Part shown: in pieces, positions 14,785 through 44,405 of the stretch
Position numbering within the stretch: the stretch's first letter is position 1
Layout: each line of letters opens with the position of its first letter
Source of the DNA: Bacteroidales bacterium
Lineage (GTDB): Bacteria; Bacteroidota; Bacteroidia; Bacteroidales; F082
Length of the DNA stretch: 64,000 bases
Direction of reading: 5' to 3'
Assembly (NCBI GenBank): GCA_017632935.1
Contig: JAGBQJ010000037.1
Coordinates: forward strand, 1 to 64,000
The notes under the pieces: generated by a model
Told to the model about the DNA's origin: nothing
The model's database searches: none
The model's input: only the letters and a program-made list of their open reading frames with translations
Made by a program: the position numbers and the translations under genes

Positions 14785-14814
14785 ATTTTATTTGGCGATT
14801 TGGATACAAAAGTG

Positions 14815-14822
14815 TATTTTTG
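14815..14822 (+). promoter_or_regulatory. -7 promoter box of the AbiL-like operon
   Basis: TATTTTTG lies downstream of the longest possible start (14800), so it sets the translation start at the ATG at 14866. Confidence 0.7.
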
Positions 14823-14865
14823 CGGTGTTAATAAGCCAATCTTGGCGATAAACACAGTTAATGTT

Positions 14866-16155: not shown

Positions 16156-16164
16156 ACCATTCCC

Positions 16165-20732: not shown

Positions 20733-21809
20733 ATGGCAAAAGAAAAACTGACCGAATTGTTTGAACGCTGGGAGTCGCTTCAGCCTTTAAGCGAAACACA
20801 GCAAAGTAGCTTGAGTCGGCGTTTTACTGTTGAGTATAACTACAACAGCAATCATATTGAAGGCAATACGCTAACCTACGGACAGACGGAGCTTTTGTTG
20901 ATGTTTGGCGCAGTAAGCGGTGAGGGTCATCTTCAGGATTTCACGGAGATGAAGGCCAGTCAGGTAGGGCTGGAAATGATGAGCCAAGCAGTAAAGGAGG
21001 GTAATATGCCAATGACCCAGCATTTCATCCGTACGCTCCATAAGACGCTTTTACGCGAGGACTACACCGTATATCGCAATCTGCCAGGCGGACAGCAGAC
21101 CAGTTATGTGATACATGCTGGTCAGTATAAGACGCGTCCCAATAGCGTAATCACCCGATATGGAGACCGCTTCGAGTATGCCTCGCCAGAAGAGACTCCT
21201 GCACTGATGTCAGACCTTGTCAATTGGTATAACGATGCCGAGCAGTCCAGGAAATATTCGGTGGTGGAGCTGGCCGCATTGTTTCATTATCGCTATATCC
21301 GTATTCACCCGTTTGAGGATGGCAACGGAAGAATCGCCCGACTGATGGTTAACTACATTCTGGCGCGTCATGGATGGCCTATGATTGTGGTGAGGAGCAG
21401 AAAAAAACAGGACTATCTGGAGGCATTGCATAAGACAGATATAGTGGTAGGGTCGGTGCCTTCCGAGGGAGCTCATGCAAGCCTTACCAAGATAAAGCAT
21501 TTCGTAAAATATTTCACAAAATTGGTGGAGGACGAACTGGCATATAATATCGCATTTGTTGAAAACAAAGACGAAACTGTGTGGTGGTACGATGGCGAGA
21601 TGCTATCGTTTAAGACACCCAATGCGGCAAAGATTCTTGGAATACTAAACAACGACCCCTACGCCACCTACCCAAGTATCGCTGAAAAAATTGGTATCAA
21701 TGTGTCGGCCATACGGAAATTGATGGATGGCATGGTGGAGAAAGGCTATATCCAACGTCGCGATACAGACAAATCGTGGCTTGTATTGGCCACGTCAGTC
21801 ATAAAGTAG
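20733..21809 (+). CDS. Fic family protein (AMP-transferase) with self-inhibitory motif
   Basis: A 358-residue Fic-domain protein that would transfer AMP (or another nucleotide) to a protein hydroxyl. The active site HPFEDGNGRIAR begins at His192. An N-terminal SNHIEGN (residues 39-45) matches the class II inhibitory motif (S/T)xxxE(G/N), so it is self-inhibited by its own helix. The C terminus is a winged-helix-like DNA-binding segment (YPSIAEKIGINVSAIRKLMDGMV in part), suggesting autoregulation. It sits between mod and res with its own promoter and leader. Target unknown. Confidence 0.9.
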   Translation: MAKEKLTELFERWESLQPLSETQQSSLSRRFTVEYNYNSNHIEGNTLTYGQTELLLMFGAVSGEGHLQDFTEMKASQVGLEMMSQAVKEGNMPMTQHFIRTLHKTLLREDYTVYRNLPGGQQTSYVIHAGQYKTRPNSVITRYGDRFEYASPEETPALMSDLVNWYNDAEQSRKYSVVELAALFHYRYIRIHPFEDGNGRIARLMVNYILARHGWPMIVVRSRKKQDYLEALHKTDIVVGSVPSEGAHASLTKIKHFVKYFTKLVEDELAYNIAFVENKDETVWWYDGEMLSFKTPNAAKILGILNNDPYATYPSIAEKIGINVSAIRKLMDGMVEKGYIQRRDTDKSWLVLATSVIK

Positions 21810-21814
21810 TTGTT

Positions 21815-24800: not shown

Positions 24801-24865
24801 AGGTGAGATATGGTTGTGTGGATTCCTACGGAAGTTTGTTGGAAGTGATGAAGGGGATGGAGTGA
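21815..24865 (+). CDS. res: Type III restriction endonuclease (Res)
   Basis: A 1016-residue SF2 helicase-nuclease that, with Mod, cuts unmodified DNA after ATP-driven search. Walker A is METGTGKTY near residue 99, motif II is MDEPQKM near residue 232, motif III is NYSATHK, motif VI is RQEVGRGLRI, and a C-terminal PD-(D/E)XK nuclease is visible as YAPDWAIAF and FIAETKGSM about 30 residues later. The start at 21815 (MKFKFKIQQYQTDAV) is preferred over an upstream one that would overlap the Fic gene. No promoter is visible between Fic and res, so res transcription probably depends on the Fic promoter. Confidence 0.92.
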   Translation: MKFKFKIQQYQTDAVESTVSVFAGQPSKTNAQYRRDLGKQKQQLKAEFEEDYVGYRNADVELNASQLLENIHHQQVQNDIPLSKSLTATNGLGACSLDVEMETGTGKTYVYIKTMFEMNKRFGWSKFIVVVPSIAIREGVYKSFTMLEEHFMELYGKKARYFIYNSANLTQIDSFSSDASINVMIINVQAFNTSFKEGAANKEARIIYSKRDDFQSRRPIDVIAANRPIIIMDEPQKMEGEATQNALKNFKPLFVLNYSATHKTSHNCIYALDAYDAYKRRLVKKIQVKGITVQNLLGTQSYIYFDSIILSKNHAPVVRLEIEVKGAAATRRQLCKFEQGDSLFAISQLPAYKDFVITEINPLTNTVYFQNGKQLRQGEVMGDVSEKAIQLIQIRETIKSHFEKERALFQQGIKTLSLFFIDEVANYKSYDVDGNEVQGPLWKMFEDEYNRYLNENLTLFEDDYQRYLRRFTAAQVHNGYFSIDKKGHSIDSEVKRGKDTSDDISAYDLILKNKERLLSFDEPTRFIFSHSALREGWDNPNVFQICTLRHANSSTAKRQEVGRGLRICVDNDGNRMDKERLGDAVHDTNKLTVIANENYSSFVDALQKETKDTLRERPTQATVDYFKGVTVKVGEEKHTISEQEAASIVSYLFDNDYIDEKGNILQDYHTDMEKGTLAPMSKKLQPIEEQVHKLIQSIFDPAALEDMVEDANGKAEVVNERLNDNAEKKEFKALWNEINHRYVYTVHYDSEELIQKAIAAINSELNVTQLKYVVTTGTQGDDELDFTGEQSTRTKEMRDVSTSNVPYDLVGDIAKAATLTRRTVTRILKGIQRSKLYMFKNNPEEFIRKVSHIIREQKATMIVEHISYNRTENQYDSDIFTKEKSRQTVDKAYEAKKHILDYVFPDSQGERAFAEDLDKAEEVCVYAKLPRSFQIPTPVGNYAPDWAIAFNDNMGVKHVFFIAETKGSMDSMQLKGVEKAKIDCAKKLFNNVSTSQVRYGCVDSYGSLLEVMKGME

Positions 24866-29596: not shown

Positions 29597-30970
29597 ATGT
29601 ATATAGAAAGACCCATAGACGCATTGCTTCTGGAATGGAAGAACAGCCGCAATCACAAACCACTCTTGTTGAGAGGTGCACGACAGGTGGGTAAATCGTG
29701 GGCCGTGGAACACTTGGCTGAGACGTTTGAATACTTTATCGAGGTAAACTTTGAAAAAAACTCGGATATGCTGGAGTTTTTCGAGAAGATTCACGATGTG
29801 CACGAGTTGGCCAACAGGTTGGGCATGTATTTTAACACCCCAGCGGTTCCAGGCAAGACCCTGCTTTTCATTGACGAGATACAAGACTCGGTGGATGCCA
29901 TCAAGAGCCTATGGTCGTTCAAAGAGGATTTCCCGGAACTTCATGTAGTAGCTGCAGGCTCGCTTTTGGAGTTTGCTCTCAAAGGGTTGTCGTCGTTTGG
30001 TGTGGGTCGGATACGCTCGTTGTTTGTCTATCCCTTCTCTTTTGACGAGTTTTTGGTGGCAGAGGGAAAATCGGCATGGGTGAAAGCCAAGCAGGAAGCA
30101 ACCTCGGAAAAGCCGTTGCTCACGCCATTGTACAATGACCTTGTACAGCATTACCGCACTTTCCTGATGGTGGGTGGTATGCCTGCCAGCGTGGCTGCCT
30201 GGATAACGACGCACGACTACCGAGAATGTCAGGCTGAGCTTGACGACATCCAGCTGACCTATTACGACGACTTCCCGAAATACGCCGACAAGGTTGATCC
30301 GACGTTGCTTCGCAACACATTGCAAAGCGTAGTGATGCAGATAGGGGAGAAATTCACCTATAGCCATGTGGACGGAGGTTATCGGGCCGAGGACGTGAAA
30401 AAGGCTTTGTCCCTGTTGTGCGATGCGGGCATCATCAAGAGGGTGAAACACACGGCTGCCAACGGCATTCCACTTGGAGCAGAAGTCAACAATAAATTCA
30501 ACAAATACATCTATCTTGACAGCGGGTTGTTGCTGCGGATTCTCGACATGGACCTGGGCGGATCGCGACAGCTGACCGAGCTGATTCTCGCCGGTACCGC
30601 CGAGGATTTGGTGAACAAAGGTGGTTTGGCAGAGATGATGCTGGGCTGGGAGTTGGTGAAGTACAACAATTCACGTTCGCAGCATGAGCTGTTCTATTGG
30701 GAAAACACTGCCGAGGGTACGCGGTCAGAGGTGGATTACATCATCACTCGCGACCTGAAGGTGCTGCCCATCGAATGCAAGGCGGGTGTTAGCGGCAAGA
30801 TGAAGAGTTTGTATGAGTTTATGCGCCAGAAGCATTTGACGGAAGCCATTCGTTGTTCGTTGGAGAACTTTGAACAGTTGGAAAACATTGACAAGAAGGA
30901 CAACAATGCTGTGCGTCATGTCCAGATACTTCCGCTGTTTGCGGTTTCTAATCTTTTTGATGTTTTTTAA
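29597..30970 (+). CDS. AAA_14/DUF4143 ATPase
   Basis: A 457-residue predicted cytoplasmic ATPase. Walker A is GARQVGKS (residues 27-34), Walker B is LLFIDEIQDS near residue 95, a sensor-type AAGSLLEFAL follows, and the C-terminal DUF4143 domain includes FYWENTAEGTRSEVDYIIT and LPIECKAGVSGKM, a PD-(D/E)XK-like signature (VDY, ECKAG). The family is widespread and often multi-copy in Bacteroidales; its cellular role is not established. It lies just inside the left repeat of the island, but its composition is more chromosomal than the genes that follow. Confidence 0.88.
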   Translation: MYIERPIDALLLEWKNSRNHKPLLLRGARQVGKSWAVEHLAETFEYFIEVNFEKNSDMLEFFEKIHDVHELANRLGMYFNTPAVPGKTLLFIDEIQDSVDAIKSLWSFKEDFPELHVVAAGSLLEFALKGLSSFGVGRIRSLFVYPFSFDEFLVAEGKSAWVKAKQEATSEKPLLTPLYNDLVQHYRTFLMVGGMPASVAAWITTHDYRECQAELDDIQLTYYDDFPKYADKVDPTLLRNTLQSVVMQIGEKFTYSHVDGGYRAEDVKKALSLLCDAGIIKRVKHTAANGIPLGAEVNNKFNKYIYLDSGLLLRILDMDLGGSRQLTELILAGTAEDLVNKGGLAEMMLGWELVKYNNSRSQHELFYWENTAEGTRSEVDYIITRDLKVLPIECKAGVSGKMKSLYEFMRQKHLTEAIRCSLENFEQLENIDKKDNNAVRHVQILPLFAVSNLFDVF

Positions 30971-31725: not shown

Positions 31726-32976
31726 ATGAAGAGAATTGTACTTTATGCGATTATGGCTTTATGCTTGATTAGTTCAAGTTGTGATGCCCAAACAAGAAGA
31801 AGAGGTGGCGGTCATGAAGGAAACAGTGAGCCTACCCAAAAAACAGAAACGATTAAACCAGCTTCTAATAAGCCTGTAGTCAATGTTTATATTGAGAATT
31901 CAGGGAGTATGGATGGATATTTGAAGGGGGTTACCGAGTTTGAGTCTGCAGTATATAACTATTTGTCAGACATTAAGATTTCGGATATTACCGACACCTT
32001 GAATTTGTATTATATCAATAGTGAGATTATTTCCTATGCGCAAAGTGCTGATGCTGATGTTATTCGAGATTTTATTAGCAAACTCGAGCCAAATGAGTTT
32101 AAAAAACGAGGAGGAAACAGAGGTACTTCTGATATTGCTGATGTAATAAAGTCAATATTAAAGGAAACTCGAGATGGTGTTATTTCCATAATGGTTACTG
32201 ACGGCATTTTTTCACCAGGTAAAGGTAAAGATGCTGAAGCTTATCTTGTAAATCAAGAAATCGGAATAAAAACATCGATGGCTGAGCATTTAAATAAATA
32301 TCCAAAATCGGCTGTGATTTTATATCAATTGTCTTCGAAGTTTGATGGCACTTATTATAATAAGGTGGATGCTAAGATTCCCTTGAATAATGTACAAAGG
32401 CCATTTTATATTTGGATATTTGGTCAAGCATCTGATCTGGCAGCATTGAGAGAAGCAGTTCCGGAAAACAAGTTTAATGGAAGTGGAGTTGAAAAAATGT
32501 TTTCTATTGTCGCTGGAAATCAAAGAGTTGATTATGCAGTTAAGCCAAAGTCGGGTAATTTTTGTGTTTCAAGAAATAATCCAAAAACAGAAATTAATAA
32601 ACTAAAAGCGGATCGTGACGGGAAAGTGAGGTTTTCCGTAAACGCGGACTTTAAAGATTTACTGTTGGATGAATCTTATATTATTGATTCTAGAAATTAT
32701 GAATTACAGATTTATGATCTTAAAGTTGCACCGAAAACAGATTCCAAATACACTCATACGATTACGCTTGCTACTGAAAATAGGAAACAGAAAAATGGAG
32801 AATTGAGCATCAAATTAATGATGACCGAACCTAATTGGGATGATGTGAACGATCCTATTGGTTTAGAAGCCGTTCCTGGAAAAACCTATGGAATAAAGTA
32901 TCAGATAAGTGGCATTTATAAGGCTTTTGCAAATAAGGCAAATTATTATACGGAGCTTATTATCAACATTAAATAA
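31726..32976 (+). CDS. Exported vWA-like (MIDAS) protein, first intact gene of the cytoskeletal/ion-channel operon
   Basis: A 416-residue protein with a signal peptide (IVLYAIMALCLISSSC; weak lipobox at Cys19, so lipoprotein or signal-peptidase I substrate). The mature part has a von Willebrand A-type metal site: IENSGSM at residues 56-62 (Glu in place of the first Asp of DxSxS), a RGTSDIADVIK block carrying the Thr, and MVTDGIF with Asp159. The C-terminal ~180 residues look beta-rich. ATG 31726 is chosen because the signal peptide starts there; it lies five bases after the broken DUF6565 gene. Location periplasmic or surface. Likely adhesion or scaffolding part of the complex (inference). 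Confidence 0.75.
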   Translation: MKRIVLYAIMALCLISSSCDAQTRRRGGGHEGNSEPTQKTETIKPASNKPVVNVYIENSGSMDGYLKGVTEFESAVYNYLSDIKISDITDTLNLYYINSEIISYAQSADADVIRDFISKLEPNEFKKRGGNRGTSDIADVIKSILKETRDGVISIMVTDGIFSPGKGKDAEAYLVNQEIGIKTSMAEHLNKYPKSAVILYQLSSKFDGTYYNKVDAKIPLNNVQRPFYIWIFGQASDLAALREAVPENKFNGSGVEKMFSIVAGNQRVDYAVKPKSGNFCVSRNNPKTEINKLKADRDGKVRFSVNADFKDLLLDESYIIDSRNYELQIYDLKVAPKTDSKYTHTITLATENRKQKNGELSIKLMMTEPNWDDVNDPIGLEAVPGKTYGIKYQISGIYKAFANKANYYTELIINIK

Positions 32977-32994
32977 CTAAAAGTAACATTTATT

Positions 32995-33435
32995 ATGAAC
33001 ATTATTTTTTCATGGATTTATGGATGGTTTATCTCTATTTTTGGAGAAGATCTGGATTATCACTTATTTGGTTATGAATGCCAAGGTGATGAATTTGTTT
33101 TGGGCGACAGATGCCTCTATACCCCAATTGGATTAGTTGCACTAGGTGTTGCTATTCTGTTTTTTGTGCTGTATTATTACATAGTTAATTCAGCAAAATT
33201 AAACAGGTGGTGGCATTGGGTAATCGTGATGCTATTGGTTGGTATTGTTAATTTCTTTGTCGGTCACGCATGGACTGTTGCCGAATTGCCCAATATGGGA
33301 GGATGTTTGACAGTCTATGTTGGTGATTGCTGGTTGTTTGGATTAGCAAACGCTATTGTGTCCGCTCTTTTCTTCATTATTATCTCGTTCGCAGGGAAAT
33401 GGGGAAGTAGTCAATGTAAACATACACCTTTCTAA
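32995..33435 (+). CDS. Small polytopic membrane protein of the operon
   Basis: 146 residues with about four hydrophobic segments: an N-terminal IIFSWIYGWFISIF, then GLVALGVAILFFVLYYYIV, WVIVMLLVGIVNFFVGHAW and ANAIVSALFFIIISFAG. Several Cys residues lie in the predicted loops (YECQGDE, GDRCLY, GGCLTVYVGDC), possibly disulfide-bonded. No family recognised. It lies 18 bases after the vWA gene and 34 before the tubulin-like gene; probably the membrane partner of one of them. Confidence 0.7.
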   Translation: MNIIFSWIYGWFISIFGEDLDYHLFGYECQGDEFVLGDRCLYTPIGLVALGVAILFFVLYYYIVNSAKLNRWWHWVIVMLLVGIVNFFVGHAWTVAELPNMGGCLTVYVGDCWLFGLANAIVSALFFIIISFAGKWGSSQCKHTPF

Positions 33436-33469
33436 TTTAACTGAGTATTAACAAATTAAATAAGCAAAC

Positions 33470-34891
33470 ATGAAAGTATATGTATTTGGTATAGGAGGAA
33501 CAGGATCTCGCGTTATGCGTGCTATGACTATGCTTTTAGCTTCTGGTGTGGAATGCAAGGCCGACGCTATTGTTCCGATTATTGTCGACCCAGATGCTGC
33601 GGGTGGTGATGTTGAACGTGCAGCCACTTTGATGCGGCATTATGGTGAAATTAGAAGCAAATTGGACTTTTCATCCAAAAAGCAAAACAGGTTTTTCCGT
33701 ACAGAAATTATGGAAACCATGCCTAATTTTCGATTACCTTTAAGCAACACAGAGGATTGCCGCTTTGATGAATACATGGATTTGAGCGGCATGTCGAAAG
33801 AGAACAAAGCTTTGGCTAGATTATTGTTTTCGCAGAAAAACCTTGACTCTGACATGAAGATTGGATTTAAAGGCAATCCCAATGTGGGTAGTGTGGTTTT
33901 GAATCAGTTCGAGGATTCCATACATTTCCAGAATTTTGCGAATGACTTTACCGCACAAGATAAGATATTTATCATTTCTTCCATCTTTGGTGGAACAGGA
34001 GCTAGCGGCTTCCCGCTTTTGTTGAAGACGTTGCGCACTAGCAATAACATCGCAAATCCTAATCTTGTGAATAATGCTCACATTGGTGCCATTACGGTGT
34101 TGCCCTATTTCCAAGTGCAACAAGATGATGAGTCTTCGATAGATTCAGCTACTTTTGTTTCAAAGGCGAAATCAGCTTTGTCGTACTATCTTCGTTCCAT
34201 TAGTCAAAACAACACCATTGACGATCTCTATTACGTGGGAGATGATACCCGAACAACATACGAGAATGTTGAAGGTGGTGCAGAGCAAAAAAACAATGCT
34301 CATTTTGTAGAATTGATTTCAGCTTTAGCATTGATAGACTTTGCCAATTCACAAAATCCGAATCCAGAAAGGTCTAATGCAGAGTATTTGCAGACTGTAC
34401 ACAAGGAGTTTGGTATTGAAAAAGATTCCAATGAAATAACTTTTGTGGAACTTGGACAAAAATCAAAAAAGCAACTTCGCAAGCCCATGACCCAGTTTTT
34501 ATTGTTTGCTAAATACTTGGATGAATACAGGGACTTTATGAGTCAGCCATGGGTGGTTGACCGCAAATTTGACGATAACTTCTTTGATAGCGATTTTATT
34601 TCTACATTAAAGACGGTACAAAGCGAGTATATAGGATGGCTTGCTGAAATGGCTGGGCAACAAAGAGCTTTTACACCATTTAATTTGCATCGTGATCCTA
34701 ATAGAGTATTTGATTTGGTAAAAGGCAATTCTCCGAGAGGAGTTTTCTTTGATAAAAACTTCAAATTTTTTGATAATCGTTTGAACGGAACGCGTGGCGA
34801 AAGCAAATCGGGAGAAAAAGAACAACAATTTGCGGAGTTGTTCTATTTGGCTACAGAAAAATTGGTAAAGGACAAATTAAATATTGATTAA
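33470..34891 (+). CDS. Tubulin/FtsZ-superfamily GTPase-like protein
   Basis: 473 residues. The N terminus MKVYVFGIGGTGSRVMRAM gives the first glycine-rich nucleotide loop seen in FtsZ and tubulins, and SSIFGGTGASGFPLLL places the tubulin signature GGTGASG at residues 174-180. The middle carries an insert (about 60-135) absent from FtsZ. A cell-division role is unlikely, because this gene lies in an accessory operon and lacks FtsZ's conserved tail. Its stop is two bases from the next start. Family match is to the divergent tubulin-like proteins of bacterial gene clusters with vWA and OmpA-type proteins; polymerisation is an inference. Confidence 0.75.
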   Translation: MKVYVFGIGGTGSRVMRAMTMLLASGVECKADAIVPIIVDPDAAGGDVERAATLMRHYGEIRSKLDFSSKKQNRFFRTEIMETMPNFRLPLSNTEDCRFDEYMDLSGMSKENKALARLLFSQKNLDSDMKIGFKGNPNVGSVVLNQFEDSIHFQNFANDFTAQDKIFIISSIFGGTGASGFPLLLKTLRTSNNIANPNLVNNAHIGAITVLPYFQVQQDDESSIDSATFVSKAKSALSYYLRSISQNNTIDDLYYVGDDTRTTYENVEGGAEQKNNAHFVELISALALIDFANSQNPNPERSNAEYLQTVHKEFGIEKDSNEITFVELGQKSKKQLRKPMTQFLLFAKYLDEYRDFMSQPWVVDRKFDDNFFDSDFISTLKTVQSEYIGWLAEMAGQQRAFTPFNLHRDPNRVFDLVKGNSPRGVFFDKNFKFFDNRLNGTRGESKSGEKEQQFAELFYLATEKLVKDKLNID

Positions 34892-34893
34892 TT

Positions 34894-37800
34894 ATGGCAG
34901 TTTTTAGATTATACAATATCCAAGGCAACAACAATATAGTTGATTGGCAGGTGTCTCAAGTGTATGGCACTCAGGCTATCGGTGAAATCTCAGACCCAGA
35001 CGGAGCTACGGCCAAAAAAGAAATAACATCAATTCCTTCACCTTTTGCAAGAATCGACTTGGTAAAGACTGCATTTAGGGAAGTGACGAACATGGTAAGA
35101 GGTGGTCGAGATAAGAAAGCGGCGTTAAACGGGATAACCATTTATCATAAAATGGTGTCCGAAATGTTTGATGTGGCTCAGCTGTTCTTTAATTTTAACC
35201 GCTTTAAGGACAAGTTCGAAATTCTTGTGTGGGATAGAGATAGAGATTTGGATGTGAACAACATATTAGGTAATACGCTCAAACTTTATCTGGAATCGGA
35301 TGCGAAAGGAAATGATCCATACAATTTTGGGAAGATGAGAAGGATTTATTTGCTGAATTATATAGGTCCAGACCGTCCTTCGGACATGAATATTGTTGGT
35401 GGAACTTCACCTACGACACTTTTCTTTTCGTCGGCGAATAGCTTAAGCTATGTCTCAAGGAACGTTATGTTTGATACTGATAGGCCATTTGACGATGGTT
35501 TTAGTCCCTTGTACAAACGCAGTTTTGATTTCCAAAAATACATGTTCGCATTAAGGAAATCTAACAGGAGGTTTGCCACAGAGTTTCCTGAGGTTAACGA
35601 TTATCTTGATTTGACCTATGGCTGCCTTTCCAATGATGAGAAAAGTGAAATTGACCGACTGACAGAGACTACTATCAACGATTATGAACCTATTGGTGTG
35701 GGTGAAAGGGGGCAGGATTTTCTTGAGATTCTTGGCCATCCTTTCCATAAAATATCTCAAGCTCCTAACTGGGATAGCGATTTTAAGATCAGAACAAGTA
35801 TCTATTCTGGTGACAAACTTCCTTTTGTTTTACCTATAGAAAAGGGTAATGTATATGCAAATTATGTATATACAAGTAGCATTTGGGGACAGGAAAATGC
35901 TGCACCCTATGTTGCATTGGATAGCAATAAAAAAGTCATCCCGTGGAAACAACGCCGTCTTCCTAAAGTGAACGATGAGTATCCTTTCTTGACTATCAGC
36001 GACTTTTTGGAGGATGTTGTAATCCGTTTGCCATACAAGCAAAATAGTGACGATTACTTTGATGGAGGTTATGTATGCCGTGATGAGAACGAGAAATGCA
36101 GTTATCTTTTACCACTGACTGATTTGTTTTTCCAATTCTTTAGTGTAAAGGAACTGAAAGAGACTATTCCTGGAACAAATAAAAAAATGCTTGAGTTTGT
36201 TGAAAATGTAGGCGGTGTAAAAGTGTTGTTACGTGTTCCTGTTAAAAAAGGTTTTATTGAGTATAGTCGTATCTATTATAAGGACGCCAGTCCTGATGTG
36301 AGTGAGAAAAAGAATGACGGTGGTTTGATTGAAACCAAATTCGGATTGGGAATCATGCCGTTTGTCCGTTTCCCAGATGATGTGGATAAGCATTATCGCG
36401 TCGCGTTTTATGACAAAGGTAAATCAAATACTACTCTTTCTTTTAGAGATTTGAATAACAATAACGACCTTGTAACAAATAGAGTGCCTCGTGCTGAAAA
36501 GGGCGTTTCTGGTTGTAGCCATGAAGCTTATGTTGTAGAAAGCAATTTTGACAGAATTAAGGTCCGAATGGGACAATATGGGGGTTATATTGTTCCAAAA
36601 TTCCAAAAAGTCAATGAAACAAATGGAACCTTTACTTTTGCTGTTGATTTTGGAACTACCAATACCCACATTGAGTATTGCACTGATGCTAATAAAACGC
36701 CAAAGGCATTTGACGTTAAAAAGGATGAAAAGCAAATTCATAAAATGCATGAGTTTTATGATGATCCAGATATTCGAATAGCCTTTGAACAGGATTTTAT
36801 CCCCGATACTATTGGCGATAAATACAATTTCCCCATGCGTACAGTGTTTGCCAGTCGAAAAGGAATGAAATTGGAAAATAATCCCATGCCCTTGAGCGAT
36901 GGTAATATTCCATTTTTGTATGAAAAAGACATTATGCCTATTTGGGATACAATTAATACTGAATTGAAATGGGGAAGTGTTTCTGAGCGTTTACTTGAAA
37001 TGCATCTGGAAACACTATTCATTCTCATGCGCAACAAAGTGGCTATAAATAATGGTAATCTTTCTGCAACTAGAGTGATTTGGTTCTATCCAGCCAGCAT
37101 GACGGTGGCAAAGGTCAATCAATTCAATCGGATTTGGAAAGATGCATACGAAAAATATTTCGGTAGTAATTCGCAAAACAATGTGATTAGCATTTCTGAA
37201 TCAAAAGCTCCGTATCTACACTTCATTTCATCACAGGGAGCAGCTGATGAAATAGTTACTATTGATATTGGTGGAGGCACTACGGATGTTTTTGTTGTTG
37301 AGGAGCAAAACGATCGAATGTTGCTTTCGTTCAGATTTGCTTCCAATGCTATTTTTGGAGACGCATACAATAGCAATCCTCAGAAAAATGGATTCGTATG
37401 CAAGTATAAAGATGATTTCAAAAAGAAATTGGATAGCAATGGTCTGCTTGAACTGTCTCAGGCCTTGACTCAAATTGAGGCACAAGGGAAATCTTCGGAT
37501 ATTGTAGCTTTCCTGTTCTCATTGGTAGGTGATAAAGTAAAAAGCAACAAAGAACTCGATTTCTTACGCAAACTCAAAGGAGATGATCGTATGCGTTATG
37601 TTTTCATCATCTTTTATGGATCAATCCTGTATTTCTTGGCTAAGGCTATGAAAGCTAAGGGCCTGGTTAAACCAAAGACAATAGCGTTCAGTGGAAATGG
37701 TGCCAAGACGCTCCATATTCTTTCAGAAGAAGATAGTATGGTTGCTCGTTTTGCCAAACTAATTTTTGATGGAGTTTATGGTGACAGCACTGGTACTATT

Positions 37801-38271
37801 GAGGTGATGATGGAAAAGAATCCCAAGATAGCCACTTGTAAAGGAGGTATCGAAAGACCTAATGCTCAACCGTATGATCAAATTGGTAATATCAAAACTA
37901 TTTTTGTAGGAAATGATTTTGCATCTACCAACGATGAAAAGCTTACTTATGCTAATATTACAGATAGTATTAAGAACGAAGTAGTAGAGTCGGTGAAGGA
38001 TTTCTTTGTCTTCTTGTTTGAACTTCATAAAAACAATAATGAGTTTCTCATCAATAATCTTGCAGCCGATTCCTCTATTTTCAATGAAGTGAAGGAGTTT
38101 TGTTTGGGAGATGAAGGAATGCAGCTGTTGCAAGTGTCAATGTCAAAGGGAATCGCTAACAAACGTGATACCGACGGAGTGAATGATGAAACCCAACTAG
38201 AGGAAACGTTATTCTTCTATCCATTGGTGGGATTCCTTCATAATTTGGCATACAAAATCTATAAGATGTAA
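34894..38271 (+). CDS. Giant actin/Hsp70-fold ATPase (SrfB-like)
   Basis: A 1125-residue protein. The C-terminal half is an actin-like ATPase: phosphate-1 loop VDFGTTNTHIEY with Asp585, phosphate-2 loop TIDIGGGTTDVFVV with Asp791, and adenosine-binding AFSGNGAKTLHIL near 931-943. The N-terminal ~570 residues are of unknown fold, beta-rich by eye, and would be a targeting or scaffold region. The order and size recall the SrfB family of putative virulence factors. No substrate-binding Hsp70 domain follows, so a filament or switch role is more likely than a chaperone. Translationally coupled to the tubulin-like gene. Confidence 0.75.
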   Translation: MAVFRLYNIQGNNNIVDWQVSQVYGTQAIGEISDPDGATAKKEITSIPSPFARIDLVKTAFREVTNMVRGGRDKKAALNGITIYHKMVSEMFDVAQLFFNFNRFKDKFEILVWDRDRDLDVNNILGNTLKLYLESDAKGNDPYNFGKMRRIYLLNYIGPDRPSDMNIVGGTSPTTLFFSSANSLSYVSRNVMFDTDRPFDDGFSPLYKRSFDFQKYMFALRKSNRRFATEFPEVNDYLDLTYGCLSNDEKSEIDRLTETTINDYEPIGVGERGQDFLEILGHPFHKISQAPNWDSDFKIRTSIYSGDKLPFVLPIEKGNVYANYVYTSSIWGQENAAPYVALDSNKKVIPWKQRRLPKVNDEYPFLTISDFLEDVVIRLPYKQNSDDYFDGGYVCRDENEKCSYLLPLTDLFFQFFSVKELKETIPGTNKKMLEFVENVGGVKVLLRVPVKKGFIEYSRIYYKDASPDVSEKKNDGGLIETKFGLGIMPFVRFPDDVDKHYRVAFYDKGKSNTTLSFRDLNNNNDLVTNRVPRAEKGVSGCSHEAYVVESNFDRIKVRMGQYGGYIVPKFQKVNETNGTFTFAVDFGTTNTHIEYCTDANKTPKAFDVKKDEKQIHKMHEFYDDPDIRIAFEQDFIPDTIGDKYNFPMRTVFASRKGMKLENNPMPLSDGNIPFLYEKDIMPIWDTINTELKWGSVSERLLEMHLETLFILMRNKVAINNGNLSATRVIWFYPASMTVAKVNQFNRIWKDAYEKYFGSNSQNNVISISESKAPYLHFISSQGAADEIVTIDIGGGTTDVFVVEEQNDRMLLSFRFASNAIFGDAYNSNPQKNGFVCKYKDDFKKKLDSNGLLELSQALTQIEAQGKSSDIVAFLFSLVGDKVKSNKELDFLRKLKGDDRMRYVFIIFYGSILYFLAKAMKAKGLVKPKTIAFSGNGAKTLHILSEEDSMVARFAKLIFDGVYGDSTGTIEVMMEKNPKIATCKGGIERPNAQPYDQIGNIKTIFVGNDFASTNDEKLTYANITDSIKNEVVESVKDFFVFLFELHKNNNEFLINNLAADSSIFNEVKEFCLGDEGMQLLQVSMSKGIANKRDTDGVNDETQLEETLFFYPLVGFLHNLAYKIYKM

Positions 38272-38330
38272 GTGTTTAACGAGGCAGCAATAGGTTGTTA
38301 AACCTGTTGCTGCCTTTAAATAGAGGAGCC

Positions 38331-39245
38331 ATGAAAAAAAGGTGCTTTTTATTGTTGTTTTTTTGTGGATTTTTTGCTTATTGTAGTGCAGCTTCTACAT
38401 TAGATTTAAACAAAATACTGCAAGCTTCCGGTGTGCTTATTATTAAGGTTGATACGGTAACAATAGTAGATTCAACTAATGTCATTACCCTTGATAATAT
38501 AATGTTTGAGAATTTCAAATCCCGTATCGTTGACACTACTGACTACAAGGCTTCCGTTGCTCGTTTAACAGGGCAAATAGAGGGTTTACAATTACAATTG
38601 TCAGAGGAAAATGGGAAGAAATCTTCATTGATGAAAATCTTTCCTTTTTTATTATTAGGTTTAGTTTTCATTTTGTTTGTCTTGTTTTTCGTGGATAGAG
38701 CAAAAAGAAAAGATAGGTTAAAAGAAGAGGTAGTAAGAATTGTTCTAGAGAGCAAACGGCTGAAGAGTTGGCGTGATGATAGCGAGGCAAAACCAAGAGT
38801 CCAATCTACTGTTCAAAATGTCAAAACGTATGATCGAGAAATCAATGATTTGCTACGAAGGATAGGTGCTTTGGAGGACAAGAACCAAAAGGAGGAACAA
38901 TCTTATCGGAAGACCGAAATACCGATTTCGCAACCTATACCTACAAAGAATAATATGATGTTATATGGAGATTTCATCAATGACGGCTGTTTCTCTAGGG
39001 TGAAGGAAAACCCAGATGATGACACTAACTTTGAATTGCATTTAATAAACGAAAGAACTGCATCTTTCATTATCTACCGACCTGCATGCCCTCGTATTAT
39101 CAGTAATCCTATGGCTTTCTTGCAAGGATGTGAAAAGCAGGTTTTGGGAAATACTATAGTATCAATTGTAAAAGAAGGAACTGCAATGAAAGATGATAAT
39201 GGGAAATGGAGAATAAGCGATGAATTAAAGGTTGAAATTAGATAG
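38331..39245 (+). CDS. Signal-peptide, single-pass membrane protein with novel C-terminal domain (paralogue 1)
   Basis: 304 residues. Signal peptide (CFLLLFFCGFFAYCSA), a short periplasmic part, a membrane helix (IFPFLLLGLVFILFVLFFV) near residues 104-122, a basic cytoplasmic juxtamembrane segment, a coiled-coil linker, then a ~95-residue C-terminal domain starting YGDFINDGCFSRVKENPDDD. That domain recurs in the next gene. The start at 38331 is preferred over one 36 bases upstream because the signal peptide begins there. Function unknown; topology suggests it links the envelope to the cytoplasmic NTPases. Confidence 0.7.
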   Translation: MKKRCFLLLFFCGFFAYCSAASTLDLNKILQASGVLIIKVDTVTIVDSTNVITLDNIMFENFKSRIVDTTDYKASVARLTGQIEGLQLQLSEENGKKSSLMKIFPFLLLGLVFILFVLFFVDRAKRKDRLKEEVVRIVLESKRLKSWRDDSEAKPRVQSTVQNVKTYDREINDLLRRIGALEDKNQKEEQSYRKTEIPISQPIPTKNNMMLYGDFINDGCFSRVKENPDDDTNFELHLINERTASFIIYRPACPRIISNPMAFLQGCEKQVLGNTIVSIVKEGTAMKDDNGKWRISDELKVEIR

Positions 39246-39249
39246 TGCT

Positions 39250-40257
39250 ATGCGAAAGCGATTTGTTTTAGGACTTCTGACAATGTTGTTGTGTTATTCG
39301 TTTGGAATGGCGCAGAAAACATATACAGTAACTGGAAATGGAGATGGAGGATTGCTTTTGATTGCAAAAAAGAATAATATTTCATTAGAGCAATTACGTG
39401 AATGGAATAATAAATGTGATGATTTGGTTAAGAAAGGAGATGTATATTATGTAGAAGACCCCAAAGAATATACAAAAAATGCTGAAACGCAACTCCAATT
39501 TGATTCAAATATGGAGTTGAATAAAAGCAAAGAAGAATTTGGCGATACCAACGGCGTTGTAAGTAGTGGCGATTCGAATACACTACAAAATGATACATAT
39601 GCTAATCCATCTGGAAAAACAAATCCTCGTTTTTGGTGGTTTTGGCTCATCATTGGAATTATTACAGGAGCCTTCATTTGGGAAATTGGGGTGAGAAAAC
39701 GGATAATTCGAGACAAAGAGAATCAGAATTCTCCTAAACAGAATCTTGATAATTCTTTTGAAATAGGTAGTCTGAAGAATGAAATCCAAAAACTTACCAA
39801 GGAAAAGCACCAGCTTAAGAAAAAGGTCGAAAGCCTTGAGGAAGAGAAAGGAGAGTTGCTTGAGGAGAATATTAGACTTGGAGAAAGAATGGATGATGCT
39901 TTCAGCAGAAATATTGATGAAAAGGCATCCAATAATAACCATAATACCTATAATAAATGTAGTGATGTATTATATGCTGATTTTATAAACGAAGGTTGTT
40001 TTTCTCGTGTAACTGAAATTCCGAATGATGATTCAAATTTCGAGTTGCATTTGAAGAATGAAAAAACGGCAGCTTTTATTATCTATTTGCCTGCTATGCC
40101 TAGAATTGTAAGTAATCCCGCTGCATTTCTGCAAGGATGTGACAAGCAGGTTCTTGGTCAAATAGGCGAGGTGGCAATAAATAGGGAGGGATTAGCTCAA
40201 TATGATACAGATGACAAATGGAAAGTGATTAATAAGTTGAATGTTATAATCAAGTAA
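39250..40257 (+). CDS. Signal-peptide, LysM-like, single-pass membrane protein with the same novel C-terminal domain (paralogue 2)
   Basis: 335 residues. After the signal peptide (ending SFGMAQ) comes a LysM-like peptidoglycan-binding module (YTVTGNGDGGLLLIAKKNN, ISLEQLREWNNKC, LVKKGDVYYV), a low-complexity linker, a membrane helix (WWFWLIIGIITGAFIWEIG) near 133-151, a strong coiled coil (about 175-215) and the shared domain from YADFINEGCFSRVTEIPNDD. The LysM end would sit in the periplasm and the shared domain in the cytoplasm. It starts four bases after its paralogue ends and stops four bases before the channel gene. Confidence 0.72.
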   Translation: MRKRFVLGLLTMLLCYSFGMAQKTYTVTGNGDGGLLLIAKKNNISLEQLREWNNKCDDLVKKGDVYYVEDPKEYTKNAETQLQFDSNMELNKSKEEFGDTNGVVSSGDSNTLQNDTYANPSGKTNPRFWWFWLIIGIITGAFIWEIGVRKRIIRDKENQNSPKQNLDNSFEIGSLKNEIQKLTKEKHQLKKKVESLEEEKGELLEENIRLGERMDDAFSRNIDEKASNNNHNTYNKCSDVLYADFINEGCFSRVTEIPNDDSNFELHLKNEKTAAFIIYLPAMPRIVSNPAAFLQGCDKQVLGQIGEVAINREGLAQYDTDDKWKVINKLNVIIK

Positions 40258-40261
40258 GACT

Positions 40262-41881
40262 ATGCATTATCTCATAATTTTTGTTATTATTGCTATAATT
40301 GTTTTCTTTCAAATCAAGAGATACAAAGACACAATAAGGAAAATCAATATCTTCAAGAATGTCTTTGCTTCAAAAAGGGAAAGTTACACTTATGGTAACT
40401 TACAGCAAATTGAGAAATCTGTCATCGATGCCAAAGATGAAGACTTGAAGATGATGCTAAAAATAGCTGGAGCCGATGTTGAAGATTTCTACTTTGTGGA
40501 AAGAGGCGAGGATGGGGATGAGTATTTTGCGTTCAACACTTCTGCCGCCCCAAAGGCTCTTATAGAAAACAAATCTTTATCGAAGGGGATTTCATCAAGC
40601 CACTGCAACCCAATTTTCAATGAGATTAAGGATGCTATCAATAGTTATCTTTCCAACAACAAAGGTTCGGTTAGTGATTTCCATCTAATGAAAGACATTG
40701 TTGACCGTAATTGTGATGCCAAAGAGGAAGAAATCAATACACAAATCCCAGTTCCCCTTTATCTTGGTTTAATGGGCACAATGGCAGGTATTTTGATTGG
40801 CATTGGTTATCTTTGGTTTTCTGGCGATTTGTCGGCGCTTTTGAATGCAGAAAATGACAATTCTGGAGCGGAAGGAGTGGAGGCTTTACTTGGTGGTGTT
40901 GCATTGGCAATGATTTCGAGCATTTTGGGTATTTTCTTTACCACAAGAGGCTCAATGAAAGCTAAGGATGCTAAAGCCGAAGAAGAAAAGAACAAGCATT
41001 TGTTTTTGAGTTGGATGCAAGCTAATTTGTTGCCTAACCTTTCGAATGATACTGCCCAAATGCTGGAAAGAATGTCGAGCAACCTAGTGGCGTTCAATAA
41101 TACTTTTTCCAACAATACGACAGAATTGGGAAAGGCGTTGTCACAAGTTAATGAAGCAACAAAACTGCAAGGTCAGTTAATTCAAGCGGTTGAGAAACTG
41201 GCGGATAAAAACATTTCTATGCAGAATCTTGAAGTATATAATGCGCTGAAGAACAGCTCTGAAGAGATAGGAACTTTGGCAAAGTATTTGAATAGTTCGA
41301 ATGAATACCTTGCTGCCGTTCGTGAACTGAATGAAAAACTGGATAAGGATGAAAATCGAACGAAAGCTGTGGAAATGATGGCTGTATTCTTTGAGAATGA
41401 AGTGACACAAATAGAACAAAGGAAGGCTTTTATTAGCAAAACGGTTGGTGAAATTGATAGTCAATTGGAGGAACAATTGCGGAAACTTGGTGAACACGCA
41501 AGTGAAAATGTGAATAATTTCTATTTGGCTTTGGGTAAGCAACAGGATGCGTTACAAAAAAAATTAGATGAAACACAGGTCGTTGTGGATGAACTAAAGA
41601 ACTTGAGTCCTATAAAGGATAGTATTTCCAGATTTGAGAAAGCTATCACAGAACAGAATCGTAAGATTGATCGACTGACAGAGAGTATCAAGTTGCTTGC
41701 AGAGGCAAAAGTAGAAGACTCTATTCGTGTACATCGCGCACATATTGAGCATGGAATTCCAGTTTGGAAAATAGTAATAATTTGGAGTTCCGTGGTATTA
41801 GGTTTTTTGGTGCTTTTGTCGTTAATTATTGCAAATTGGAATGCAATATATTCATTTTTGTTGGATGTTTTGAGGTTTTGA
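40262..41881 (+). CDS. MotA/TolQ/ExbB-like (ZorA-like) channel protein with coiled-coil tail
   Basis: 539 residues. A membrane helix at 1-17, a cytoplasmic segment, then two diagnostic helices: IPVPLYLGLMGTMAGILIGIGYL (about 162-184, quoted as IPVPLYLGLMGTMAG) and LLGGVALAMISSILGIFF (about 209-226), matching the paired pore helices of MotA, TolQ and ExbB. A ~250-residue coiled coil follows and a final membrane helix near 502-526. A MotA-like core with a long tail is the layout of ZorA in Zorya defence, but the extra C-terminal helix differs. It would form the stator ring with the next protein and conduct protons or Na+ (inference). Confidence 0.8.
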   Translation: MHYLIIFVIIAIIVFFQIKRYKDTIRKINIFKNVFASKRESYTYGNLQQIEKSVIDAKDEDLKMMLKIAGADVEDFYFVERGEDGDEYFAFNTSAAPKALIENKSLSKGISSSHCNPIFNEIKDAINSYLSNNKGSVSDFHLMKDIVDRNCDAKEEEINTQIPVPLYLGLMGTMAGILIGIGYLWFSGDLSALLNAENDNSGAEGVEALLGGVALAMISSILGIFFTTRGSMKAKDAKAEEEKNKHLFLSWMQANLLPNLSNDTAQMLERMSSNLVAFNNTFSNNTTELGKALSQVNEATKLQGQLIQAVEKLADKNISMQNLEVYNALKNSSEEIGTLAKYLNSSNEYLAAVRELNEKLDKDENRTKAVEMMAVFFENEVTQIEQRKAFISKTVGEIDSQLEEQLRKLGEHASENVNNFYLALGKQQDALQKKLDETQVVVDELKNLSPIKDSISRFEKAITEQNRKIDRLTESIKLLAEAKVEDSIRVHRAHIEHGIPVWKIVIIWSSVVLGFLVLLSLIIANWNAIYSFLLDVLRF

Positions 41882-41913
41882 TACATGTTGGAAATGTGTA
41901 GTTTTAGTTTGTC

Positions 41914-42582
41914 ATGAAAAAAAACAAAAAAGAATCCTATTTTTGGACAAGTTATTCTGACTTGATGACGAGTTTATTCTTTGTCATGCTTGTATTGTTT
42001 ATTTTGACAATTGTATTGCTTCGAAACAAGATGATTGAACTTGAGAGAGAAAGAAATATAGCAGAAGGAGAAAAAGCCGCTACAGAAGCACAATTGACAA
42101 AGATTACGGAACTTGAAAAATCAATACAGAATATTGACACTGTTTATTTTTTGTATAACGCTGATTATAAGATGCATGTGCTAAAGACAAAAGTGAAATT
42201 TAAGAGTGGTAGCGCAAATTTTGGAGATTTGACTTTTGAAGCTAGGCAGGAGTTATATGCTGTTAGGGATCTGCTAAAGGAATCGATGGAATCTTTTGTG
42301 AAGACTAATCCGGAAGCTTCATATTTACTGATAATAGAAGGCCAAGCTTCTTTTGATGATTACATCCATAACAATGAGTTGAGCTATCAAAGGGCGTTGG
42401 CGTTGTTCAAGTTTTGGTTTCCAAATCAAAAAACAACGAACTTGAGGTTTTACAATCTGCCTTGTGAGGTCATCATCGCAGGCGCGGGTTGTATGGAAGG
42501 CAAACCAAGGGCTCCTTTGAATGAGGATAATCAACGTTTTTTAATACGAATACTACCTAAACCAGGATTAATAGGAGAATAA
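41914..42582 (+). CDS. MotB/OmpA-like (ZorB-like) stator partner
   Basis: 222 residues. The N-terminal membrane helix reads WTSYSDLMTSLFFVMLVLFI with Asp16 at the position of the ion-carrying Asp of MotB and ZorB. A periplasmic coiled coil follows and then an OmpA-type peptidoglycan-binding domain: VKFKSGSANFGD, LLIIEGQASFDD and NNELSYQRALALF, the last matching the NxLSxxRA signature. Together with the upstream MotA-like protein it makes a complete predicted ion-driven unit anchored to the cell wall. It lies 32 bases after that gene. Confidence 0.82.
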   Translation: MKKNKKESYFWTSYSDLMTSLFFVMLVLFILTIVLLRNKMIELERERNIAEGEKAATEAQLTKITELEKSIQNIDTVYFLYNADYKMHVLKTKVKFKSGSANFGDLTFEARQELYAVRDLLKESMESFVKTNPEASYLLIIEGQASFDDYIHNNELSYQRALALFKFWFPNQKTTNLRFYNLPCEVIIAGAGCMEGKPRAPLNEDNQRFLIRILPKPGLIGE

Positions 42583-43506: not shown

Positions 43507-44405
43507 ATGAAATACAAGGCACTGATTTTTGTTTCATTATTTGTCTTGTCATCAATCTGTACCTTTGCGCAGATGGGATTACAAGATTATGACCAATTGG
43601 CACCTAAGTATTCAGGCCATATACCAACCTATAAACTGTCACAGACTGGATTAAAAGGCAAAATTCGTACAATTGTTTTAAAAACGGGGGAAGGAGAAGA
43701 AAGGTTCGGAGAAGTTGGTTTTAAGGATTATAATGATGCTGAATCAACAATCCTCTCATTTGACGAGAAAGGTAATTTGTTGAATTGCTCTTGTTTCGGA
43801 AAAATTGGTGGTGATAGGATGATTAAATCAAAGGTGGTGTATTCTTATGATAACAAGAACAGGCTTTTAAGAATTGACCAATAGGATTCTACTGGTGAAA
43901 GGCTGAAATCCTGGCTATATAATTATGATCAGAATAAAGGATTAAGTTCGGTTAAGGTGGTTGATATTTTGCACGATGGAAGTGCTGAGTTTGAATTAGA
44001 TGAAAATGGAGGAATACTAAAATGGAGAGAATATGACAACGATGGCAATCTGAAAGATGTAACCAATTTTGATAATAGATATACATATTTCAGTAATGGA
44101 AAACTAAAGTTGGTTGCAGTGTATGTGTTCGATCAACTCGGAAGATTAATAACATTAGACGACTCAGGGAGGATTGTTGAAGATGTGTATTATGAAGGAG
44201 ACGGCGTTTGGAGCGAGAAAAGCAAATACTCATATGACTCGAAAGGTTTTTTTCCACGTTTGAAAAAACCAACATTGTTTCAGGTAGTCAAGGAGTTTGG
44301 AATTATTCCAGTGTTTATGATAACCAAGGAAATGTCATAAAAACGTACAGAGGTGATGCTTCAACTGGTATATATTTAACCACATTTGAAATCGACTATT
44401 GGTGA
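43507..44405 (+). pseudogene. YD-repeat-like exported protein with an in-frame TAG and a T-run frameshift
   Basis: Signal peptide ending CTFAQ, then short repeats of the YD type (YSYDNKNRLLRIDQ, YVFDQLGRLITLD, YSYDSKGFF, VYDNQGNVIKTY). The frame is interrupted by TAG at 43882-43884 and shifts at the T7 run near 44246-44253; T8 would restore the frame and extend it to YLTTFEIDYW and the TGA at 44403. In-frame continuation on both sides of each lesion shows it was once one gene. Now probably non-functional. Confidence 0.7.

What the first reader, a model, noticed from the sequence alone, without database searches (positions are those of the whole stretch)
31726..42582. Candidate undescribed machine: tubulin-like plus actin-like NTPases with a MotA/MotB-type stator and envelope adaptors
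Eight intact genes in one direction with short gaps encode: an exported vWA-like protein, a polytopic membrane protein, a tubulin/FtsZ-like GTPase (GGTGASG), an 1125-residue actin/Hsp70-fold ATPase (DFGTTNT, DIGGGTTD), two membrane adaptors sharing a new cytoplasmic domain (one with LysM), a MotA/TolQ-like channel with coiled-coil tail, and a MotB/OmpA-like partner with the membrane Asp. Having both a tubulin-like and an actin-like NTPase coupled to an ion-driven stator in a single operon is very unusual. Known parallels: Zorya (ZorA/ZorB stator) and comparative-genomic predictions of an FtsZ-like/vWA/OmpA membrane-remodelling system. Inference: ion flow drives or gates a cytoskeletal assembly tied to the wall, perhaps for phage defence or envelope remodelling.
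Basis: partly seen in the sequence, partly recalled or inferred. Interest (0 to 1): 0.92.

Follow-up and report, generated by a model that had tools for sequence, protein, structure and literature searches.

The report
Tubulin-actin operon with ion motor
A Bacteroidota bacterium carries a conserved set of eight genes that put a tubulin-like and an actin-like protein together with a wall-anchored ion-driven motor; relatives often add exported proteases and nucleases, and the set looks like a mobile, uncharacterised machine that may protect cells against phages.

Summary
Eight intact, closely spaced genes (31726-42582, +) encode a vWA-like lipoprotein (A), a small membrane protein (B), a tubulin/FtsZ-like GTPase (C), a 1125-aa actin/Hsp70-type ATPase (D), two membrane adaptors sharing a C-terminal domain (E, F), a MotA/TolQ/ZorA-like channel (G) and a ZorB/MotB-like partner (H).

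It is a conserved system: of 97 loci around C genes, D is found in 94, A in 82, B in 85, E/F in 77, G in 70, H in 63, mostly in Bacteroidota. The window's own copy has neither beside it.

The set is patchy (8 of 296 phylum genomes), sometimes beside integrases, on plasmids, and on two terminase-bearing viral contigs near restriction genes. Best explanation: a Zorya-like envelope machine of a conflict system, probably anti-phage (0.5). A flank test showed no defence-gene enrichment. Folds rest on sequence profiles; structure prediction was off. It is a new variant joining FtsZl1-type and Zorya-type parts.

The parts
31726..32976 (+). A: exported lipoprotein, vWA-like (ExSGSM MIDAS-like motif)
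   Evidence: Cys19 of the lipobox and E57, S59, S61, G64, D159 invariant in 28 aligned members; 27 of 28 pass a rough lipobox test; found in 82 of 97 loci. No useful Pfam or PDB match.
32995..33435 (+). B: small polytopic membrane protein (3 hydrophobic segments)
   Evidence: Hydropathy; found in 85 of 97 loci; weak MreD similarity E 5.3e-4, 20 of 34.85 bits.
33470..34891 (+). C: tubulin/FtsZ-like GTPase of the Tubulin_2 (FtsZl1) kind; GGTGASG at residue 174
34894..38271 (+). D: 1125-aa protein: ~570-aa N-terminal region of unknown kind, then an actin/Hsp70-type (ASKHA) ATPase; phosphate-1 DFGTTN at 585, phosphate-2 DIGGGTTD at 791, adenosine-like FSGNG at 932
   Evidence: found in 94 of 97 loci.
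38331..39245 (+). E: adaptor: signal-like N-terminus, one further hydrophobic segment, C-terminal domain shared with F (the listed ORF opens at TTG 38295)
39250..40257 (+). F: adaptor: signal-like N-terminus, weak LysM-like stretch, one hydrophobic segment, coiled coil, C-terminal domain shared with E (the listed ORF opens at TTG 39232)
40262..41881 (+). G: MotA/TolQ/ZorA-like channel subunit with long coiled coil and a C-terminal hydrophobic segment (504-522)
   Evidence: Hydropathy; R149, P165, G169, L170, G176, G180 invariant in 35 members; window protein ZorA_4 E 6.3e-4; any one ZorA model hits at most 13 of 35 and MotA_ExbB 7 of 35 N-terminal parts; found in 70 of 97 loci.
41914..42582 (+). 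H: ZorB/MotB-like subunit: one TM with invariant Asp16, OmpA-like domain
   Evidence: found in 63 of 97 loci.

Best explanation
A mobile, envelope-spanning NTPase machine of the conflict kind, most likely anti-phage, that works like Zorya at the membrane but has a different inside. Shown by sequence: G and H resemble a Zorya/MotAB-type ion-driven stator, H ends in an OmpA-like domain, C and D are a tubulin-like GTPase and an actin/Hsp70-type ATPase found together in 94 of 97 loci, E/F are single-span adaptors with a conserved domain, A and most downstream hydrolases of relatives have lipoprotein signals. Inferred: H binds peptidoglycan and senses a disturbance of the wall (for example phage entry); ion flow past Asp16 turns or strains the G ring; the coiled coil of G and the conserved domain of E/F pass this to a C-D assembly under the inner membrane, whose GTP and ATP cycles set a threshold or build a local polymer; the output reaches the periplasm, where in many relatives a lipoprotein protease and a nuclease would cut incoming protein and DNA, or the protease would activate the nuclease. 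The window copy has no such hydrolase beside it, so its output is open.
For: Gene order recurs across 97 loci; C and D pairwise distances correlate at r 0.90 over 76 loci, more than C with G 0.75, B 0.67, A 0.66, H 0.63, E/F 0.51 or the trypsin-like protease 0.47 (shared ancestry not removed). The H family is nearest, among solved structures, to 8vvn_B (E 1.1e-14, positions 3-208 of 209) and 8qyd_F (4.6e-8), then MotB (8qyd chain A is named ZorA; that 8vvn is a Zorya complex is recalled). Asp16 invariant in 32 of 32. In a phylum sample H-type proteins stood at 4 places, all 4 within 9 kb of a C gene, two of the four being the own genome's copies. Downstream: protease in 44 loci (GSSGG or GSSGS in 28 trypsin-like, DTGA in 16 aspartyl), nuclease in 22, both in 16; hydrolases go with H (42 of 51 against 3 of 12 loci, Fisher p 2.8e-4). 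Mobility: C in 8 of 296 phylum and 13 of 198 order genomes, own genome included; a tyrosine-integrase family just upstream in 9 of 97 loci, two members confirmed by Pfam; two near-identical IMG/VR contigs carry the operon and a terminase and an N6-methylase, and in the longer one HsdR-like and DUF262 proteins lie 8-18 kb from it with that methylase. In the window a methyltransferase, a helicase protein and an ATPase/RloB-like pair lie at 14.8-24.9 kb. In Zorya, peptidoglycan binding, the ZorA tail and the ZorB Asp are needed for defence (PMC11890865, abstract and passages).
Against: No enrichment of defence genes in the nearest flanks: about 8 of 142 flank proteins hit PADLOC models at E 1e-20 against about 5 of 141 control proteins (the tool lists 12 and 9 models, which I merged to proteins by name; three of the 18 control stretches lie on contigs that also carry the system). 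No ZorC, ZorD or ZorE seen. The window copy has no hydrolase beside it and the own genome gave only an HtrA-like 493-aa frame and a weak partial match. Among 13 neighbouring proteins on two cyanobacterial plasmids the A, C and D families are found but not G/H. The own genome has no terminase of PF03237. No fold could be predicted, and the G family has no convincing PDB match.
Confidence: 0.5

Rival explanations
1. Envelope remodelling machine: the C-D polymer, driven by the stator, shapes the inner membrane and wall, as proposed for FtsZl1 systems; the hydrolases trim envelope proteins.
For: Published proposal for FtsZl1/vWA/OmpA loci (PMC2875224); C is of the Tubulin_2 family; several membrane parts.
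Against: Patchy and at times on viral contigs; the genome has its own FtsZ and MreB; nucleases downstream in 22 loci have no obvious remodelling role.
Confidence: 0.2
2. Handling of lipoprotein hydrolases for nutrient use: the machine moves or regulates periplasmic proteases and nucleases that digest environmental protein and DNA.
For: 42 of 44 proteases and 19 of 25 nuclease proteins pass a rough lipobox test; hydrolases go with H; secreted nucleases of these families are common in scavenging (recalled).
Against: 9 of 51 H-bearing loci with room downstream show no hydrolase; rare, patchy distribution and carriage on viral contigs; mostly basic residues after the lipid Cys of the proteases, unlike the acidic surface-export signal of Bacteroidota lipoproteins (recalled).
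Confidence: 0.13
3. Interbacterial antagonism: the hydrolases are effectors delivered to neighbours by a novel envelope machine.
For: Exchangeable catalytic domains and nucleases.
Against: Most hydrolases keep lipoprotein signals; no immunity or outer-membrane export family among the 25 of 119 Pfam families shown for 134 downstream proteins.
Confidence: 0.07
4. DNA segregation or replication aid of mobile elements, as with TubZ or ParM.
For: Tubulin- and actin-type NTPases; plasmid and viral-contig carriage.
Against: Membrane stator, lipoproteins and wall-type domain; most loci are on contigs of bacterial genomes.
Confidence: 0.03

Closest known systems
FtsZl1 (Tubulin_2, PF13809) / vWA / OmpA system (Makarova and Koonin 2010, PMC2875224, parts 1-3 of 5 read)
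   Same: Tubulin-family GTPase with a vWA-type exported protein, an OmpA-domain protein and lineage-specific membrane proteins; Bacteroides caccae is in its alignment legend. That FtsZl1 equals PF13809 is my equation.
   Different: C is ~473 aa, without the coiled coil and helical C-terminal domain said to be typical; an actin-type ATPase, a full G/H stator, E/F adaptors and protease/nuclease modules are not named in the parts I read; no P-loop GTPase or kinase was found in A-H.
Zorya (ZorA/ZorB core; PMC11890865, abstract and passages)
   Same: H is closest to ZorB and G's family to ZorA models; long cytoplasmic coiled coil, ion-path Asp, OmpA-like domain; modular effectors.
   Different: No ZorC/ZorD/ZorE seen; tubulin-like and actin-type NTPases instead; C-terminal hydrophobic segment in G; hydrolases mostly with lipoprotein signals.
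GTPase-centric (DO-GTPase/GAP1-N2) conflict systems with tubulin and vWA (Kaur et al. 2020, PMC7159879, abstract and passages)
   Same: Tubulin plus vWA (and, in another theme, HSP70) in predicted conflict systems with variable effectors.
   Different: [quoted passage not shown] 'MotA' does not occur in the main text; no genuine Walker A GTPase here.
System 3 of Kaur et al. 2020: peptidases coupled to NucA-like endonucleases (passages)
   Same: Trypsin-like protease and non-specific endonuclease together, suggesting a proteolytic switch.
   Different: Here they follow a stator operon, as separate, mostly exported proteins; trypsin-like and Endonuclease_NS occur together only in L080 and L108, the other pairs use other families.

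Membership tests
Zorya | ZorB-like subunit with membrane Asp and peptidoglycan-type domain | tested here: met
   PADLOC ZorB1 1.2e-12; 8vvn_B 1.1e-14; Asp16 in 32 of 32. Far below the NCBIfam cut-off: ZorB1 26.6 of 400 bits.
Zorya | ZorA-like MotA/TolQ channel with long cytoplasmic tail | tested here: inconclusive
   Window G: NCBIfam ZorA_4 18.8 of 500 bits, E 6.3e-4; its N-terminal part hits no PADLOC model at 0.01; any one ZorA model hits at most 13 of 35 family members; tail present but followed by a C-terminal hydrophobic segment.
Zorya | ZorC, ZorD or ZorE effector genes | tested here: not met
   None among the window's operon proteins, the full list for 142 flank proteins at E 1e-20 or the 25 of 42 models shown for 134 downstream proteins.
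FtsZl1 / Tubulin_2 | Tubulin_2-family GTPase domain with glycine motifs | tested here: met
   25 of 28 family members hit PF13809, best 3.2e-8; the window protein scores 21.3 of 27 bits; GGTGASG at 174.
FtsZl1 / Tubulin_2 | Long coiled coil and helical C-terminal domain | tested here: not met
   C proteins are mostly 460-530 aa, against 1051 aa with a coiled coil at 445-781 for the founding member (PMC2875224); no coiled-coil model hit C.
FtsZl1 system | vWA gene and OmpA-domain gene in the operon | tested here: inconclusive
   H carries an OmpA-like domain; A is vWA-like by motif only.
DO-GTPase/GAP1 conflict system | TRAFAC P-loop GTPase and GAP1 protein | tested here: not met
   No genuine Walker A motif in A-H, one spurious pattern in D; GAP1 itself not tested.
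Actin/Hsp70 (ASKHA) superfamily (D) | Phosphate-1, phosphate-2 and adenosine motifs in order | tested here: met
   At 585, 791 and 932 in D; strict patterns in 81, 64 and 80 of 95 D proteins, fragments included.
Tubulin fold (C) and actin fold (D) | Three-dimensional fold | not testable with these tools
   Structure prediction switched off.

The most novel reading that the evidence does not exclude
A categorically new envelope machine: a peptidoglycan-anchored ion-driven stator coupled to a paired tubulin-actin NTPase assembly that controls periplasmic protease-nuclease effectors, so that phage DNA is attacked before or as it enters the cytoplasm, spread between bacteria and temperate phages as a defence cassette.
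Probability: 0.3. Interest if true: 0.93.

Novelty: new variant of a known kind. Interest (0 to 1): 0.8.

Why it matters
If right, it would be a case of an ion-driven stator working with tubulin- and actin-type NTPases in one bacterial operon, would point to a function for the FtsZl1 family predicted in 2010, and would extend Zorya-like sensing to defence acting in the periplasm. It is rare per genome but scattered through Bacteroidota, including named strains such as Winogradskyella thalassocola and Christiangramia sediminis, so it can be tested.

Tried and rejected
Primary division or shape cytoskeleton: rejected, the genome has its own FtsZ and MreB. Member of Zorya: rejected as a filing, no ZorC/D/E seen. 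Defence-gene enrichment of the nearest flanks: tested, not found. A hydrolase elsewhere in the own genome serving the window copy: only an HtrA-like frame and a weak partial match. C against FtsZ by hhalign: weak (P about 1, E 0.055), so the tubulin call rests on Pfam and weak PDB hits (best 0.012). G against the PDB at full length: swamped by coiled coils; on the N-terminal part lactose permease (0.0084) scored above ZorA (0.054). G N-terminus against one own TolQ/ExbB-type protein by hhalign: P 9.9. PF01618 does not hit the window G in its own genome. C in phage records: no match. PMC12505986 (passages) leaves ZorAB out of its tree and does not mention Bacteroid- words; PMC9871819 (passages) does not name FtsZl1. 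Paper searches that gave nothing on the whole combination.
Full report
What is there. Eight ORFs on the + strand between 31726 and 42582 are intact and closely spaced. C matches Pfam Tubulin at 3.6e-6 and Tubulin_2 at 1.8e-4, both below the curated cut-offs, but 27 and 25 of 28 family members match these models. D carries phosphate-1, phosphate-2 and adenosine-like motifs in order at 585, 791 and 932; its family profile finds MreB (7.7e-5) and, more weakly, Hsp70 chains, and a profile-profile comparison with 13 Bacteroidota MreB proteins gives P 89.8 and E 1.8e-6, against P 0.05 for C with MreB and 0.04 for D with FtsZ. H matches ZorB models at 1.2e-12 and, as a family of 32, the solved chains 8vvn_B (1.1e-14, nearly full length) and 8qyd_F (4.6e-8). 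Its membrane Asp16 is invariant in all 32, as are an Arg-Ala pair and an Asn of the OmpA-like domain. G shows TolQ/ZorA-type helix motifs in its family alignment (motif recognition by eye). The window G matches NCBIfam ZorA_4 only at 6.3e-4; of 35 N-terminal parts at most 13 match any one ZorA model and 7 match MotA_ExbB. G ends in a further hydrophobic segment. E and F share a 96-residue C-terminal domain at 63% identity. A is a lipoprotein by its leader; its vWA nature rests on an ExSxS motif.

How conserved. Of 198 genomes of the order, own genome included, 13 hold C homologues at E 1e-3. I annotated 97 loci: the window, 11 stretches, and these 85; four further stretches that lie on the same contigs as L063, L065, L107 and L111 were dropped. 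L114 and L115 are near-identical and both counted. The kept loci favour close relatives, many contigs are cut, and some family assignments at E 1e-4 may be spurious (E and F are coiled-coil proteins; a 514-aa B in L023 is doubtful). Found: A 82, B 85, D 94, E/F 77, G 70, H 63 of 97. In 296 genomes of the phylum, own genome included, C was in 8 at E 1e-20, and H-type proteins at 4 places in 3 genomes at E 1e-8, all 4 within 9 kb of a C gene; two of these are the own genome's copies, and not all first-look candidates were scored. C and D distances correlate at 0.90 over 76 loci, C with G at 0.75, with H at 0.63 (shared ancestry not removed). On plasmids of Picosynechococcus and Gloeothece (Cyanobacteria) the C and D families are found again (C 9.4e-66 and 4.5e-65, D 1.1e-49 and 5.6e-38), with A-like neighbours (2e-8 and 3.1e-15, the latter on the other strand) and E/F-like proteins clearly only in Picosynechococcus; B, G and H were not matched among the 13 proteins tested. 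A Prevotella replicon listed as a plasmid has A-B-C-D-E/F, with no G/H among its forward ORFs tested. The same genome as the window holds a second copy, A-B-C-D-G-H without E/F, followed by a DUF4357 protein and a non-specific endonuclease.

The downstream hydrolases. 180 unassigned same-strand proteins follow C within these operons; I scanned 134 of them, leaving out 46 (the window's, remote loci, a duplicate and some distal ones). Pfam finds Trypsin_2 in 28, aspartyl protease in 16, Endonuclease_NS in 10, SNase in 9, Exo_endo_phos in 4; only 25 of 119 families are shown. The 28 and 16 proteases carry a similar short leader, a lipobox followed by mostly basic residues, on two unrelated catalytic domains; 42 of 44 pass a rough lipobox test, GSSG(G/S) is in the 28, my His pattern in 26 of them, and DTGA in the 16. 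Nucleases occur in 22 loci (10 Endonuclease_NS proteins in 9 loci, 9 SNase, one of them a 92-aa stretch, and 6 EEP-type ORFs in 5 loci by my profiles); 8 of 10, 8 of 9 and 3 of 6 pass the lipobox test, and the motif His is seen in 8 of 10 Endonuclease_NS proteins. 16 loci have both kinds. Of 83 loci examined 63 have at least 1.5 kb beyond the core; hydrolases stand in 42 of 51 with H and 3 of 12 without (one search gave 41 of 50 and 4 of 13; I moved L035 by hand because its H lay beyond the distance cut; L068, whose two downstream ORFs were not scanned, counts as without hydrolase; Fisher p 2.8e-4 for the corrected table). The window copy has none: a 105-aa ORF without a family follows.

Mobility and context. 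Integrases of one family stand just upstream of the operon in 9 of 97 loci, two of these loci being near-duplicates; two members were confirmed by Pfam. Two viral contigs carry the second-copy type of operon with a terminase and an N6-methylase. In the 103.6-kb one the methylase (6.5e-57), an HsdR-like protein (48% to annotated type I R subunits over 84%) and a DUF262 protein lie 8-18 kb from the operon, and an integrase near the contig end. In the C tree (quick method) the own second copy pairs with this viral copy with top support, and the window C sits with a Saccharicrinis and two other MAGs. In the window a protein matching annotated DNA methyltransferases (18556-20547), one matching DEAD/DEAH helicase proteins (21776-24865) and an ATPase with a weakly RloB-like partner (14800-16746) lie upstream, the nearest 6.9 kb away; that these form a type III restriction system and an RloAB pair is my reading. 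Against this stands the flank test: 142 of 184 flank proteins gave about 8 with a PADLOC hit at 1e-20, 141 of 197 control proteins about 5. The own genome has no terminase of PF03237.

Mechanism. Steps shown by sequence: stator-type G/H, wall-type domain, paired NTPases, exported outputs in relatives. Steps inferred: sensing of wall disturbance, ion-driven motion, coupling through E/F or the G tail to C-D, and control of periplasmic hydrolases. Zorya, in which peptidoglycan binding, tail and ion flow are needed for defence (PMC11890865, abstract and passages), is the nearest working parallel; peptidases coupled to NucA-type nucleases have been proposed as another conflict system (PMC7159879, passages). 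I put anti-phage conflict at 0.5, envelope remodelling at 0.2, nutrient handling at 0.13.

Novelty. Each half has a precedent: FtsZl1/vWA/OmpA loci (PMC2875224, three of five parts read) and ZorAB. I found no paper on the joined machine in the held open-access library with ten searches; subscription papers, preprints and supplements were not covered, and the additional files of the 2010 paper, which list lineage-specific families, may already contain some of these genes unrecognised.

Noticed in passing
window 14800-16746, 18556-20547, 21776-24865 (+): Putative defence island upstream: ATP-binding protein with a weakly RloB-like partner, a protein matching site-specific DNA methyltransferases, a Fic-like ORF (20733, by eye) and a DEAD/DEAH helicase protein.
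   Followed up: partly
window 29597-30970 (+): AAA_14/DUF4143 ATPase just upstream matches PADLOC candidate PDC-S01 at 7.9e-129; no sign that it belongs to the operon.
   Followed up: no
L018 7728-18517 (own genome contig C60): Second, distant copy of the system (C 34-38% identical) without E/F, followed by a DUF4357 protein (PADLOC PDC-S14, 7.4e-16) and an endonuclease.
   Followed up: yes
L068, L070, L073, L077, L078, L085, L109, L110 (perhaps L071): In these flavobacterial loci G is split into two ORFs of about 100-150 and 430-465 aa; in L100, L104, L105 and L106 it is not.
   Followed up: no
L033, L050, L051, L063, L107: Alternative downstream parts where H was not found: zinc-ribbon proteins (some with SH3 or TPR) and, in L033, L050 and L063, a ~500-aa protein with N-terminal and C-terminal hydrophobic segments.
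   Followed up: partly
L026, L028, L031, L032, L117: Distant clade of C (about 530 aa) with a D-like 1129-1230-aa protein and no stator found by my profiles; L026 has an AAA/STAND-like neighbour.
   Followed up: partly
L093, L099, L112 (also L045, L049): Copies in records labelled Leptospiraceae, Sulfuricurvum and Williamsia (L045 and L049: Oscillibacter and Acetatifactor); all are MAG-type records, so transfer or mis-binning cannot be told apart.
   Followed up: no
window 43507-44340 (+): Two consecutive ORFs (125 and 127 aa) that look like one broken exported protein downstream of the operon (by eye).
   Followed up: no
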